Position numbers and translations under genes: made by a program. A stretch of 64,000 nucleotides of DNA from Aestuariispira insulae (GTDB lineage: Bacteria; Pseudomonadota; Alphaproteobacteria; UBA8366; Aestuariispiraceae): NCBI RefSeq assembly GCF_003385955.1, contig NZ_QRDW01000001.1:997854-1061853 (forward strand), written 5' to 3'. Below, one piece after another: positions 43,058-46,384 of the stretch (positions are counted from its first letter, which is position 1; every line of letters starts with the position of its first letter). The notes under the pieces are model-generated. The model was not told where the DNA came from. It saw only the letters and a list, made by a program, of their open reading frames with translations, and made no database searches.

Positions 43058-43285
43058 TCAGCCCCGGCGGCGGCGGCGCGGGCGCAGGTCGCTCTCGCTG
43101 ATGCGGCCCGCGGCCATGCGACGCTTTTTCAGTTCCTGAAGGATCGCCAGCCTCGCCTCATTATCCGATTTGCCCCAGATGCGGATTTCATCCCGGCTGC
43201 GCAAGCAGCCTTTGCACAGCCCGCTTTGTTTATCCAGCGTGCATACCCCAGTGCAAGGGGATGGAATATCCGGCAATGACGACAT
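43058..43285 (-). CDS. DUF1289 cysteine-rich small protein
   Basis: A 75-residue protein with four cysteines in the pattern C-x3-C ... C-x2-C (PCTGVCTLDKQSGLCKGCLRS), as in the DUF1289 family, followed by a helical segment and an Arg-rich tail (RPRRRRRG). The cysteines probably bind zinc or an Fe-S cluster. Function unknown. Upstream partner of the GNAT gene. Confidence 0.88.
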   Translation of the reverse strand: MSSLPDIPSPCTGVCTLDKQSGLCKGCLRSRDEIRIWGKSDNEARLAILQELKKRRMAAGRISESDLRPRRRRRG

Positions 43286-43377: not shown

Positions 43378-43410
43378 AACTATTATTTCGATAATTCTAG
43401 TATTATAGTT
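43378..43410. promoter_or_regulatory. Operator-like dyad upstream of the arsR-type gene
   Basis: AACTAT (43378-43383) and ATAGTT (43405-43410) form outer arms of an A/T-rich dyad. Inside lies ATTTCGATAATTCTAG (43385-43400), a 16-bp word repeated exactly at 43812-43827. Its position 34-66 bp before the ArsR start fits an autoregulatory operator. Confidence 0.65.
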
Positions 43411-43443
43411 GACAATTCACTTTTGCGACCTCATATTGCTGGC

Positions 43444-43743
43444 ATGATTGAATTGGACCTCGCCGCAAACCGCCTGGATGCTCTGGGCAATCCAACCCGC
43501 CTCGCGCTGTATCGCTATCTTGTGCGCGCAGGGGGAGATGGTCGCCCCGTGGGCAAGATTCAAGAGGCGCTGGATATCCCGGCAAGCACACTGACCCACC
43601 ATCTGAAACATCTGGAACAGGTCGGGTTGGTGAAGCGGGAAAAACACGGCACCACCCATACCTGCCGTGCAGACTATCATGCGATGGATGCGCTGCTGGT
43701 CTTTTTGACGGAAAACTGCTGTCAGGACGCAAATTGCGGCTGA
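43444..43743 (+). CDS. arsR: ArsR-family repressor with C-terminal Cys-Cys-x4-Cys site
   Basis: A 99-residue metalloregulator. The winged helix-turn-helix covers about residues 5-85 (LDALGNPTRLALYRYLV, ASTLTHHLKHLEQVGLV). Near the C-terminus are Cys92, Cys93 and Cys98 (ENCCQDANCG), resembling the As(III)/Sb(III) site of Acidithiobacillus-type ArsR proteins rather than the classic CxC in the DNA helix. The start is set at ATG 43444, where the domain begins. An ArsP-like permease follows 28 bp later, so this is likely an arsenical-responsive repressor. Organic arsenical sensing is inferred from the partner. Confidence 0.88.
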   Translation: MIELDLAANRLDALGNPTRLALYRYLVRAGGDGRPVGKIQEALDIPASTLTHHLKHLEQVGLVKREKHGTTHTCRADYHAMDALLVFLTENCCQDANCG

Positions 43744-43771
43744 CATAACCCCAGACTGTAAGGATCGGGCC

Positions 43772-44851
43772 ATGAGCACGGAAAGCACCACTGGATCTTG
43801 CTCGGATAGTAATTTCGATAATTCTAGAAATTACAGAATTATGACAAAATTGAAGAAGGTCGATCGGGTCTTGATCGCATTCCTGCTGATCCTGGCCGCG
43901 CTTTTTGTGCTGAGCCCTGATCGGTTGATGCCCAATCTGGCCTTTGTCGGCGGCAATATCCTGGAGATCGCCATTTTCTTGGGCCTCTCAGTACTGTTGG
44001 CTGCCAGCATTAAAGCCAGCGGCGCGGACCGGTTGATCGGCGCCGCCTTCAGGAGCCACGCGGGCAAAGCCGTTCTGGTGGCATCCCTGCTCGGGGCTTT
44101 TTCGCCCTTTTGTTCCTGCGGCGTCATCCCCTTGATCGCGGCCCTGCTGGCGGCTGGCGTGCCGCTGGCGCCGGTAATGGCTTTCTGGCTGGCCTCCCCG
44201 GTGATTGATCCTGAAATGATGATCCTGACCGGCGCGGCATTGGGGACGGAATTTGCTATCGCAAAAACCTTCTCCGCCATAGCGCTAGGGCTTATGGGCG
44301 GCGGCCTGGTCATGCTGATCCAGAAAGCCGGGGGCTTTTCCGATCCTTTGAAAAATCACGCTATTTCCACCTGTGGCGCCGGTGCCATCACTAGGGATGA
44401 AAAACCGGTCTGGCGTTTTTGGCTCCAGGCCGAACGCCGTGTCGCTTTTCTGCGCGAAATACGTTCCAACGGCTGGTTCCTGTTGAAATGGCTGTCGCTC
44501 GCTTTCCTGCTGGAGGCAATCATGCTGGATCACGCCCCCATGGAAGCCATCGGCGAATGGTTGACCACCATCGGTTTCTGGTCGGTGCCGCTGGCGGCCG
44601 TTGTTGGCGTCCCCGCCTATCTCAACGGTTATGCCGCAATTCCACTGGCTGACATGCTGATCACCATGGGCCTGTCGCCCGCGGCCGCCCTTAGTTTCAT
44701 GGTGGCAGGCGGCGTGACCAGCATTCCCGCCGCCATCGCGGTCCAGGCCCTGGCGCGCTGGCCGGTTTTCCTGACCTATTTGGCGGTCTCCCTGCTCGGA
44801 TCCATGGCGGTAGGATTCGCCTATCTTGGCTGGATCACCCAACTTTCCTGA
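43772..44851 (+). CDS. arsP: ArsP-like permease (DUF318), probable organoarsenical exporter
   Basis: Inner-membrane protein of 359 residues with about eight hydrophobic segments. The family mark is FSPFCSCGVIPLIAAL, whose cysteine pair is needed for trivalent methylarsenical export in studied ArsP proteins; the repeat-like GYAAIPLADMLITMGLS lies in the second half. ATG 43772 has AAGGAT upstream and is preferred. ATG 43841, just before the first membrane segment, is an alternative and would leave the second copy of the 16-bp operator word in the leader instead of codons 14-19. Cotranscribed with the ArsR gene. Confidence 0.85.
   Translation: MSTESTTGSCSDSNFDNSRNYRIMTKLKKVDRVLIAFLLILAALFVLSPDRLMPNLAFVGGNILEIAIFLGLSVLLAASIKASGADRLIGAAFRSHAGKAVLVASLLGAFSPFCSCGVIPLIAALLAAGVPLAPVMAFWLASPVIDPEMMILTGAALGTEFAIAKTFSAIALGLMGGGLVMLIQKAGGFSDPLKNHAISTCGAGAITRDEKPVWRFWLQAERRVAFLREIRSNGWFLLKWLSLAFLLEAIMLDHAPMEAIGEWLTTIGFWSVPLAAVVGVPAYLNGYAAIPLADMLITMGLSPAAALSFMVAGGVTSIPAAIAVQALARWPVFLTYLAVSLLGSMAVGFAYLGWITQLS
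43810..43842. promoter_or_regulatory. Second operator-like nested dyad at the permease 5' end
   Basis: TAATTTC (43810-43816) pairs with GAAATTA (43827-43833), and interleaved ATAATTCT (43818-43825) pairs with AGAATTAT (43835-43842). It contains the 16-bp word shared with the arsR upstream dyad. Two overlapping palindromes in coding DNA point to a protein-binding site. Confidence 0.6.
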
Positions 44852-44935: not shown

Positions 44936-45517
44936 ATGGCGCGCCCCAAGGCATTCGATCCCGATCAAGTACTGGACAAGGCAATGGAGATGTTCTGGTC
45001 CAGGGGATATAAAAACACATCCATGCAGGATCTGGTCGATTGCATGTGCATCAACCGGGGCAGTCTCTATGACACGTTCGGTGACAAACATGCGCTCTAT
45101 CTGAAGGCCCTGAATCGCTATATGGAAAAAAACTCGATCCGGATGCTCGCCGCCGATGACGACGGCCATCCGGCACGGGAGGTGATCCGCGGCCTGCTCT
45201 ATCATCTGGCAGAGGAAAAAAACTGCGATTCCGATCAACGGGGCTGTTTCATCACCAACACCATCTGCGAGCTTTGTTCCTGTGATTCCGATGTCGCACA
45301 AACCATGCAACAGGGCCTGGCCCGCATGCAGGGCGCGTTGGAGGAAATTCTGGAAGGTGGCCGACGGTCGGGCGAATTTGCCGCCGATCTGGATTGTCAT
45401 GCGGCCGCCGGCTTCTTCCTCAATACCATTCATGGCATGCAGGTCATGCGCAAGGTCCAGCCCGACCCAGCCATTTTGAAATCCATTGCCGATCAGGCGG
45501 TCGGGATCTTGCGCTAA
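44936..45517 (+). CDS. TetR/AcrR-family transcriptional regulator
   Basis: A 193-residue repressor. The N-terminal helix-turn-helix is at about residues 10-55 (VLDKAMEMFWSRGYKNTSM, then INRGSLYDTFGDKHALY). The C-terminal ligand domain has several cysteines (ICELCSCDSD) around residues 110-120, which might be redox or metal responsive. No divergent target is adjacent; it follows the permease by 84 bp. Start 44936 is where the conserved domain begins. Confidence 0.88.
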   Translation: MARPKAFDPDQVLDKAMEMFWSRGYKNTSMQDLVDCMCINRGSLYDTFGDKHALYLKALNRYMEKNSIRMLAADDDGHPAREVIRGLLYHLAEEKNCDSDQRGCFITNTICELCSCDSDVAQTMQQGLARMQGALEEILEGGRRSGEFAADLDCHAAAGFFLNTIHGMQVMRKVQPDPAILKSIADQAVGILR

Positions 45518-45591: not shown

Positions 45592-45918
45592 ATGGACCCA
45601 TTAAGCGCGACATTTTCCGCCCTGGCCGACCCGACCCGGCGTGCCATTCTGGCCCGCCTGGCGGAAGGCAGCGCCACCGTCAATGAGCTGGCCGAACCGT
45701 TTGACATTTCCCTGCCTGCTGTTTCACGGCATTTGAAAGTTCTGGAAAGCGCCAACCTGATACGGCGTGAAGTGGAAAAACAGAAACGCCGCTGCTTCCT
45801 GCAGCCGCAAGCCCTCAAGACCGCCTCTGACTGGGTTGATCTCTATAGCCGCATGTGGACCGAAAGCCTGGATGGGCTGGAAAAATACCTGGATGATTTG
45901 AAACAAGCCAAGGATTGA
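45592..45918 (+). CDS. ArsR-family regulator (SdpR-like, no metal site)
   Basis: A 108-residue winged-helix protein: FSALADPTRRAILARLAEGS and LPAVSRHLKVLESANLI are the recognition segments. It lacks a metal-binding cysteine cluster, which fits the non-metal ArsR group commonly paired with an SRPBCC/AHSA1 protein. That partner follows 4 bp downstream. Confidence 0.9.
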   Translation: MDPLSATFSALADPTRRAILARLAEGSATVNELAEPFDISLPAVSRHLKVLESANLIRREVEKQKRRCFLQPQALKTASDWVDLYSRMWTESLDGLEKYLDDLKQAKD

Positions 45919-45922
45919 TGCC

Positions 45923-46384
45923 ATGAGTGATGCCGCCCTTGAAACAGACCAGGCGCCGCTGAGCCTGACCATAGAACGCAATTTCAAACATCCGGTTGAA
46001 GCTGTTTTCCGCGCCTGGACAGAAACCGATGCGCTTCGCCAATGGATGGGCCCGACCGGGTACAGCTGCGAGGATGCCGAGATGGAAGCCAGGGCCGGTG
46101 GTCGTTACGCCTTCCCGATCAAGGATCCCGAAGGCTCCATCCATACCGCCCAGGGCGAGGTGCTGGCCATTGTCCCGAACGAATTGCTGCATATCAGCTG
46201 GTCCTGGAAACAGGATGATGGATCACAAGGCCAACAGATGGATGTGCGGCTGGAATTTCATCCGACCCCGAATGGCACAAGGCTTGTCCTCACCCACAGC
46301 AACTTCATTGATGAAGCCGCACGGGACAATCATATGGGCGGCTGGTCCGGTTGCCTGGCCTCGCTGGAGGAATTCCTCGGCTGA
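45923..46384 (+). CDS. SRPBCC/AHSA1-domain protein
   Basis: A 153-residue protein of the START-like hydrophobic-ligand fold: IERNFKHPVEAVFRAWTETD at the first strand and helix, and NHMGGWSGCLASLEEFL at the C-terminal helix. Partner of the ArsR-type regulator immediately upstream; in such pairs the ligand and role are generally unknown. Ends at a strong shared terminator. Confidence 0.88.
   Translation: MSDAALETDQAPLSLTIERNFKHPVEAVFRAWTETDALRQWMGPTGYSCEDAEMEARAGGRYAFPIKDPEGSIHTAQGEVLAIVPNELLHISWSWKQDDGSQGQQMDVRLEFHPTPNGTRLVLTHSNFIDEAARDNHMGGWSGCLASLEEFLG

What the first reader, a model, noticed from the sequence alone, without database searches (positions are those of the whole stretch)
43378..44851. 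ArsR/ArsP pair with a 16-bp word repeated upstream of each gene
ATTTCGATAATTCTAG occurs exactly at 43385-43400 and 43812-43827, each inside A/T-rich palindromes, the second a pair of interleaved dyads in or just before the permease start. The repressor has a C-terminal Cys-Cys-x4-Cys, as in trivalent-arsenical sensors, and the permease has the CSCG site of ArsP. This suggests an organoarsenical-responsive unit with a second, internal operator.
Basis: partly seen in the sequence, partly recalled or inferred. Interest (0 to 1): 0.65.

Follow-up and report, generated by a model that had tools for sequence, protein, structure and literature searches.

The report
Second ArsR operator inside permease gene
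A likely arsenic-sensing repressor gene and its efflux pump gene carry two copies of the same DNA switch, one in front of the repressor gene and one written into the first codons of the pump gene, probably so that the repressor can also stop leaky transcription from reaching the pump.

Summary
The 16-bp word is exact at both places and has no other exact copy in the 4.82-Mb assembly. The second copy is not upstream of the permease: it starts at base 41 of the permease ORF.

In the window's family, site O1 before arsR is found in 14 of 14 genomes and site O2 inside the permease N-terminus in 12 of 14. O2 is held as DNA: its codons end in A/T 59 of 72 times against 15.8 expected from the genes' own usage. 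An operator model from other families' O1 sites scores the 12 O2 sites at 25-36 bits, against a maximum of 8 in 11,523 permease-body 21-mers.

O1 abuts the -35 box of a probably leaderless arsR promoter; O2 has no such box. I read O2 as an auxiliary ArsR operator that blocks elongating RNA polymerase, like the second ArsR site engineers insert downstream of arsR to cut background (PMC3918153, passages). This is inferred; no binding was tested.

The organoarsenical part is only plausible: CSCG is general to the permease family and the third cysteine is private to this protein.

In other Alphaproteobacteria O2 often lies 6-12 nt after a T-run near the arsR stop.

The parts
43385..43405 (+). O1: ArsR operator upstream of arsR (contains the first 16-bp word, 43385-43400)
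   Evidence: exact word; O1-type site before arsR in 14 of 14 family genomes; 21-mer at -58 to -60 from the arsR start in 13 of 14
43409..43414 (+). -35 box TTGACA of the arsR promoter
   Evidence: hexamer TTGA[CA]N or TTTACA at -34 to -36 from the arsR start codon in 13 of 14 family genomes
43432..43437 (+). putative -10 box CATATT, 17 bp after the -35 box; predicted start of transcription at the arsR ATG (leaderless)
   Evidence: read from the sequence; conserved -35-to-ATG distance; inferred
43444..43743 (+). arsR: 99-aa ArsR/SmtB repressor with C-terminal CC-x4-C
   Evidence: NF033788 metalloregulator 63.4 bits over cut-off 55; PF12840, PF01022; PDB 6j05 E 1.1e-13. These three calls used 43447-43740, one codon short of the ATG
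43758..43766 (+). Shine-Dalgarno region of the permease (GTAAGGATC)
   Evidence: AAGGA 7 nt before ATG 43772; purine-rich stretches before the corresponding ATG in relatives
43772..44851 (+). PF03773 (ArsP_1) permease, 359 aa
   Evidence: PF03773 106.3 bits, E 2.2e-30; only PF03773 match at E <= 0.001 in the assembly
43812..43832 (+). O2: second ArsR operator, inside the permease coding sequence (contains the second 16-bp word, 43812-43827); codons 14-20 read N-F-D-N-S-R-N
   Evidence: 12 of 14 family genomes; A/T-ending codons 59 of 72 vs 15.8 expected; 35.0 bits by an operator model from other families' O1 sites

Best explanation
The pair is an autoregulated arsR-permease operon with two ArsR operators. 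O1 abuts the -35 box and controls initiation at the arsR promoter. O2 is a copy of the same operator written into codons 14-20 of the permease, about 370 nt downstream of the predicted transcription start. With no inducer, ArsR at O1 keeps initiation low. The leak needed to make ArsR still transcribes arsR, but polymerases that escape meet a second ArsR dimer on O2 and stall or terminate, so the permease stays more tightly off than its regulator. A trivalent arsenical (most likely methylarsenite, possibly also arsenite) binds the C-terminal cysteines, ArsR leaves both sites and the whole operon is read. Shown here: the sequence, its conservation, DNA-level constraint on O2, and absence of an O1-like -35 box at O2. 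Inferred: ArsR binding, roadblocking, ligand.
For: O2 matches O1 and lies in the permease N-terminus in 12 of 14 family genomes (5 of 7 genera). O2 is a DNA constraint: Ser is TCT in 12 of 12, although TCT is 8 of 222 Ser codons in the rest of these genes; one gene with 5% A/T-ending codons uses TTC GAT AAT TCT AGA AAA there. Synonymous recoding reaches the observed match with P 5e-5 (the floor of the test) to 1.2e-3 per gene under gene codon usage and 1e-4 to 0.029 under 5'-end usage. A model from 24 O1 sites of other families scores O2 at 25.0-36.4 bits; the maximum in 11,523 permease-body 21-mers is 8.0. Those 24 sites were themselves picked with the family's O1 model, so the two models are not fully independent. 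A -35-like box follows O1 in 13 of 14; GTTGAC follows O1 in 11 of 14 and O2 in 0 of 12 (my count). No run of five T lies in the 50 nt at the arsR stop in 14 of 14, so O2 probably lies in a readable operon. Outside the family (order and class) a second site of at least 12 bits follows arsR in 17 of 52 loci with a permease and 8 of 46 without, against 3 of 919 control windows. A second ArsR site inserted downstream of arsR lowers background in E. coli reporters (PMC3918153, passages), and ArsR is listed among roadblock proteins (PMC10310618, passages).
Against: No binding or expression data exist. Two of 14 family genomes lack O2: G002, which instead has two sites upstream of arsR, and G005. Of 16 loci from the other three families of the order, one (L025) has a site between arsR and permease, and two (L023, L024) have one 157-164 nt before the permease match with no ArsR found by phmmer. 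The 12 genomes share ancestry and are not 12 independent events. The 5' ends of these genes are A/T-richer in general (local A/T3 0.39), which weakens the codon test for some genes (P up to 0.029). By the O1-trained model O2 scores lower than O1 in 11 of 12 genomes and by the other-family model in 10 of 12, which may mean weaker binding; the window itself is an exception in both. ArsR dimers need not be strong roadblocks; many DNA-binding proteins are not (PMC10310618, passages).
Confidence: 0.6

Rival explanations
1. O1 and O2 act together by DNA looping: ArsR dimers on both sites associate and trap the promoter, as with lac repressor.
For: Two good sites 427-560 bp apart in 12 genomes; loops can also strengthen roadblocks (PMC10310618, passages).
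Against: O1-O2 spacing is not clearly held to a helical phase (R 0.43, p about 0.11 at 10.5 bp; 0.06 at 10.4; 0.20 at 10.6; 0.60 at 11.0). ArsR/SmtB proteins are dimers and are not known to me to tetramerise (recalled).
Confidence: 0.15
2. A separate permease promoter lies in the 3' part of arsR, and O2 is its own downstream operator acting on initiation or promoter escape.
For: In some other Alphaproteobacteria a strong site lies only in front of the permease, with no O1 of 12 bits within 200 nt before arsR (L050, L054, L073, L081, L082). O2 sits at a constant distance from the permease ATG: 35 nt in 9 and 41 nt in 3 of 12 (for L017 I use the Shine-Dalgarno-backed ATG seen, while the script printed a nearer ATG at 11 nt).
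Against: No O1-like -35 box accompanies O2 in the 12 family genomes; by inspection I saw no conserved promoter-like element before the permease ATG, but I ran no promoter search there. Shared descent explains the constant distance.
Confidence: 0.12
3. O2 is a relic or sponge: it binds ArsR but contributes little to permease control, kept by descent from an intergenic operator that was later overrun by an upstream start codon.
For: In other families O2 lies before the likely permease start (L055, L058, L062, L067); two family members lack it in the permease.
Against: A relic under ordinary codon selection would have drifted; the rare codons are kept in 12 genomes of 5 genera, even in a gene with 91% GC3.
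Confidence: 0.1
4. The conservation is for the peptide FD[IN]S[RG]N or for an mRNA element, not for a DNA operator.
For: The motif is in the same reading frame in all 12 genomes; the O2 RNA can form an 8-bp stem.
Against: Synonymous positions are held far beyond codon usage. The same sequence occurs at O1, upstream of the -35 box and so outside the predicted transcript. The fold of the region is not better than shuffles (z 0.33).
Confidence: 0.03

Closest known systems
Engineered E. coli arsenic reporter pPR-arsR-ABS-egfp (second ArsR binding site downstream of arsR; PMC3918153, passages)
   Same: Autoregulated arsR first, second copy of the ArsR operator downstream of arsR and ahead of most of the controlled gene; lowers background in the engineered case
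   Different: Engineered, with an E. coli-type ArsR (R773) and its operator; the site there is placed ahead of the reporter gene. Here it is natural and part of the permease coding sequence
PurR/GalR/LacI-type roadblocks at operators downstream of the promoter (PMC10310618 and PMC4132739, passages; lac O2 within lacZ recalled)
   Same: Repressor operator inside the transcribed region, proposed to block elongating RNA polymerase
   Different: Other repressor families; roadblocking is tested there, only inferred here
Type 2 ArsR: AfArsR (Cys95, Cys96, Cys102) and SpArsR (lacks the third Cys, responds to MAs(III) only) (PMC11868830, passages)
   Same: C-terminal Cys pair; PDB 6j05 (its identity as AfArsR is recalled) is the best sequence match among solved structures
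   Different: Spacing CC-x4-C here versus CC-x5-C in AfArsR; 13 of 14 family members lack the third Cys
ArsP methylarsenite permease (PF03773; Chen et al. 2015 seen only as a reference-list entry)
   Same: PF03773 membership and CSCG
   Different: No ArsP-specific model was hit; substrate untested; CSCG is general in the family

Membership tests
ArsR/SmtB metalloregulators | ArsR-type winged-helix domain | tested here: met
   NF033788 63.4 bits (cut-off 55), PF12840 59.2, PF01022 28.6
Type 2 ArsR (AfArsR-like) | C-terminal Cys pair plus third Cys as in Cys95/96/102 | tested here: inconclusive
   CC present; third Cys at x4 instead of x5; third Cys 3-7 residues after CC in 1 of 14 family members
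Type 2 ArsR (AfArsR-like) | Release from DNA by As(III) or MAs(III) | not testable with these tools
   needs protein
ArsP | PF03773 permease family | tested here: met
   106.3 bits, cut-off 32.3
ArsP | CSCG site | tested here: met
   Present, but CSC[GE] is in 65 of 66 linked PF03773 permeases, so not diagnostic
SO_0444 Cu/Zn exporter or SaoE (PF03773 equivalogs in NCBIfam) | score over the curated cut-off | tested here: not met
   81.2 of 300 bits and 73.6 of 325 bits
ArsP | Efflux of methylarsenite or other trivalent organoarsenicals | not testable with these tools
   needs resistance or transport assay
Auxiliary roadblock operator | Second copy of the repressor's operator, in the transcribed region | tested here: met
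   sequence copy. That ArsR binds it and that the region is transcribed from the arsR promoter is inferred from the layout and the absence of a T-run at the arsR stop
Auxiliary roadblock operator | Constraint on DNA rather than peptide | tested here: met
Auxiliary roadblock operator | Bound repressor lowers downstream transcription | not testable with these tools
   needs reporter or transcript assay
Two-operator DNA loop | Spacing held to the helical repeat | tested here: inconclusive
   R 0.21-0.49, p 0.06-0.60 depending on the assumed repeat

The most novel reading that the evidence does not exclude
ArsR at O2 is an elongation gate that, in other Alphaproteobacteria, works as a repressor-assisted terminator. 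Near the arsR stop codon stands a T-run, often behind a short hairpin, and the ArsR operator begins 6-12 nt after the T-run (8 nt in 7 of 13 loci). A polymerase stopped by bound ArsR would have its active site about over that T-run (the stalling distance of roughly 14-18 bp is recalled), so binding would convert a weak terminator into a strong one, and the inducer would release it. The window's family would be a derived form in which the T-run is gone and the operator has been absorbed into the permease coding sequence. T-runs occur in 13 of 25 loci with O2 against 7 of 73 without (Fisher p 2.7e-5). The loci are not all independent. A hairpin of -3 kcal/mol or better ends at the T-run in 9 of these 13, against 0.228 of control positions; 4 of the 13 have none.
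Probability: 0.2. Interest if true: 0.72.

Novelty: new variant of a known kind. Interest (0 to 1): 0.52.

Why it matters
If right, bacteria have long used the trick that bioengineers introduced by hand to silence leaky arsenic sensors: a second ArsR site downstream of arsR. It separates the regulation of repressor and pump within one operon. It also shows an operator conserved inside a coding sequence, where the peptide follows from the operator rather than the reverse, which is easy to miss in promoter-only motif searches. Annotation consequence: the first codons of these permeases are partly regulatory DNA.

Tried and rejected
Rejected: chance repeat. Rejected: the permease starting at the later ATG 43841 behind O2 (no visible Shine-Dalgarno sequence; not conserved, by inspection). 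Rejected: a regulon of many sites; with up to 3 mismatches to the 19-mer only one further place was found in the assembly, equal to the backwards-pattern control. Rejected: CSCG as an ArsP marker. Not supported: strict helical phasing. Considered for other families and doubted: the T-run as a -35 box of a permease promoter with the operator as spacer. On the loci the hexamer 17 nt later does not look like a -10 box, and such a start would fall at or past the Shine-Dalgarno sequence; this is my reading by eye, not a computed test. Led nowhere: named relatives (one search gave 4 loci; only Pacificispira spongiicola, L035, is in the family, and it equals G013); solved structures of the permease (none at E 0.01); papers on natural double ArsR operators (searches in open PMC papers only; others returned nothing, of the others I saw listings and some passages; this is no proof of absence). 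No structure prediction and no promoter scan was run.

Rows dropped before counts: the class-wide table used 112 of 128 loci held. Left out: L001-L004 and L035-L038 (other searches), L039-L042 and L044 (duplicates of family loci), and L023, L024, L029 (no ArsR found by phmmer at E 1e-5). One search matched 133 of 385 class genomes, its list of places being cut; I examined the 30 loci it returned (5 of them the duplicates above) plus 60 further places that I picked from its listing, roughly from the top, not all. The -35 pattern (TTGA[CA]N or TTTACA) was written after seeing these sequences.

Full report
WHAT IS THERE. The 16-bp word stands exactly at 43385-43400 and 43812-43827, and these are the only exact copies in the assembly of 4.82 Mb. 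The first copy (site O1) lies upstream of arsR. arsR starts at ATG 43444: TTGACA 43409-43414, 17 bp, CATATT 43432-43437, 6 bp, then the ATG, so the predicted transcript starts at the start codon. The second copy (site O2) lies inside the permease ORF 43772-44851, whose ATG follows AAGGA.

PROTEINS. The repressor is an ArsR/SmtB metalloregulator (NF033788 over cut-off), closest among solved structures to 6j05 (that 6j05 is AfArsR is recalled). The permease is PF03773 and the only such match in the assembly. The two NCBIfam models that match the permease stay far below their cut-offs, and no solved structure matched.

RELATIVES IN THE FAMILY. A search of 43 genomes of the order found the permease in 32; 14 of them (G000-G013, 7 genera) form the window's family. 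In all 14, an O1-type site stands before arsR. In 12 of 14 a second site stands inside the permease N-terminus, in one reading frame. The exceptions are G005 (one site only) and G002, where both sites lie upstream of arsR. The O2 19-mer starts 35 nt (9 genomes) or 41 nt (3 genomes) after the Shine-Dalgarno-backed ATG. For L017 the script printed a nearer ATG at 11 nt; I use the ATG behind AAAAGGA seen. The O1-O2 spacing varies from 427 to 560 bp.

DNA, NOT PEPTIDE. Codons 1-6 of O2 end in A or T in 59 of 72 cases against 15.8 expected from each gene's own usage. Ser is TCT in 12 of 12, while TCT is 8 of 222 Ser codons in the gene bodies and 7 of 39 near the 5' end. Because 5' ends are A/T-richer in general (0.39), I repeated the recoding test with 5'-end codon usage: P stays between 1e-4 and 0.029 per gene. 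An operator model from 24 O1 sites of other families scores the 12 O2 sites at 25.0-36.4 bits and the 12 O1 sites of the same genomes at 27.8-39.0; the best of 11,523 permease-body 21-mers reaches 8.0. The 24 sites had been found with the family's own O1 model, so this model is separate but not fully independent. The genomes share ancestry, so these are not 12 independent tests.

PROMOTER CONTEXT. A -35-like hexamer lies at -34 to -36 from the arsR start in 13 of 14 genomes, 3 bp after the O1 21-mer in the window. In the flanks printed I count GTTGAC after O1 in 11 of 14 and after O2 in 0 of 12. No T-run of five or more lies in the 50 nt that begin 5 nt before the end of arsR in 14 of 14. So O2 looks like a bare operator in a read-through operon. 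That favours blocking of elongation over control of a second promoter, but does not exclude a weak promoter inside arsR.

OUTSIDE THE FAMILY. Of 385 class genomes searched with ArsR, 133 matched. In 98 non-family loci that I examined (13 from the order, 85 from the class), a site of at least 12 bits follows the arsR stop in 17 of 52 with a downstream permease and 8 of 46 without, against 3 of 919 control windows; at 18 bits the numbers are 11, 5 and 1. In the 17 permease loci printed the second site mostly lies ahead of the likely permease start and its Shine-Dalgarno sequence, though the frame is open through it in some (L055, L063). T-runs near the arsR stop are found in 13 of 25 loci with O2 and 7 of 73 without (p 2.7e-5); 98 of 3,340 control 50-nt windows have one. 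The gap from T-run to operator is 6-12 nt, 8 nt in 7 of 13. A hairpin of -3 kcal/mol or better ends at the T-run in 9 of 20 cases, all nine with O2, against 0.228 of control positions; at -5 it is 5 of 20 against 0.116. In several loci (L050, L054, L073, L081, L082) O2 is strong and no O1 of 12 bits was found within 200 nt before arsR, so the layouts are diverse.

HOW IT LIKELY WORKS. ArsR at O1 limits initiation; ArsR at O2 stops most polymerases that leak through, so ArsR itself is made at a low level while the pump stays off; a trivalent arsenical frees both sites. LacI roadblocks stopped 73-96% of polymerases with an ideal operator 102 bp from the promoter, best for weak promoters (PMC4132739, passages), which fits a repressed, leaky promoter. 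ArsR is listed among roadblock proteins and used so in an engineered sensor (PMC10310618, passages), and a second ArsR site placed downstream of arsR reduced background in E. coli (PMC3918153, passages). Binding, roadblocking and ligand are inferred here. In the natural ArsR systems whose passages I read, the operator described is at the promoter: over the -35 element (PMC11868830), over the -10 box (PMC7994332), or upstream of the promoter (R773, PMC3918153).

LIGAND. AfArsR uses three cysteines; [quoted passage not shown] A third Cys 3-7 residues after CC is present in 9 of 66 permease-linked ArsRs and 36 of 46 others. Permease-linked ArsRs are thus mostly of the two-cysteine kind, which suggests methylarsenite. 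The window's own protein is an exception with CC-x4-C and might also take arsenite. The assembly has an ACR3 above cut-off, no match to the ArsM model above cut-off and none to the ArsH model, so any methylarsenite would come from outside or from an enzyme these models miss.

VERDICT. A real, conserved feature. The auxiliary operator itself I hold at about 0.9, the roadblock mechanism at about 0.6, the organoarsenical ligand at about 0.5. It is a new variant of a known kind: auxiliary operators and ArsR roadblocks are known, but I found no description of a natural ArsR operator inside a coding sequence in the searches, which cover open PMC papers only.

Noticed in passing
43409-43446: arsR is probably translated from a leaderless mRNA: a -35-like hexamer lies 34-36 nt before the start codon in 13 of 14 family genomes.
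   Followed up: partly
L025, L049, L052, L053, L055, L058, L061, L062, L063, L067, L069, L083, L086, after the arsR stop: A T-run, in 9 of 13 behind a short hairpin, ends 6-12 nt before the second ArsR operator (mode 8 nt); possible repressor-assisted terminator.
   Followed up: partly
L045, L047, L051, L052, L053, L059, L061, L069: Eight of 46 ArsR loci without a PF03773 permease downstream also carry a second site of 12 bits or more after arsR; L046 and L048 fall just short. In L046, L048, L051 and L060 the next ORF looks like an FAD-dependent monooxygenase (my reading of translations).
   Followed up: no
112 ArsR loci: A third Cys 3-7 residues after the CC pair is found in 9 of 66 permease-linked ArsRs and 36 of 46 others: a possible sequence marker for methylarsenite versus arsenite sensing.
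   Followed up: partly
L007 (G002), about 520 and 478 nt upstream of the permease match: This family member lacks O2 in the permease but has two operators upstream of arsR, the second between the -35 box and the arsR start.
   Followed up: partly
L006 (G001), about 430 nt upstream of the permease match: A third, weaker dyad overlaps the arsR start codon.
   Followed up: no
L023 and L024, 157-164 nt upstream of the permease match: A strong O1-type site with a TTGAC box stands before the permease although no ArsR was found in these stretches.
   Followed up: no
43058-43285 (-): A DUF1289 gene is divergent from arsR; ORFs that look alike by eye stand there in L009 and L010.
   Followed up: no
44936-45517 and 45592-46384: A TetR-type regulator follows the permease, then a second ArsR-type regulator (without CC) next to an ORF that looks like an SRPBCC/AHSA1 protein (the last by eye).
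   Followed up: no
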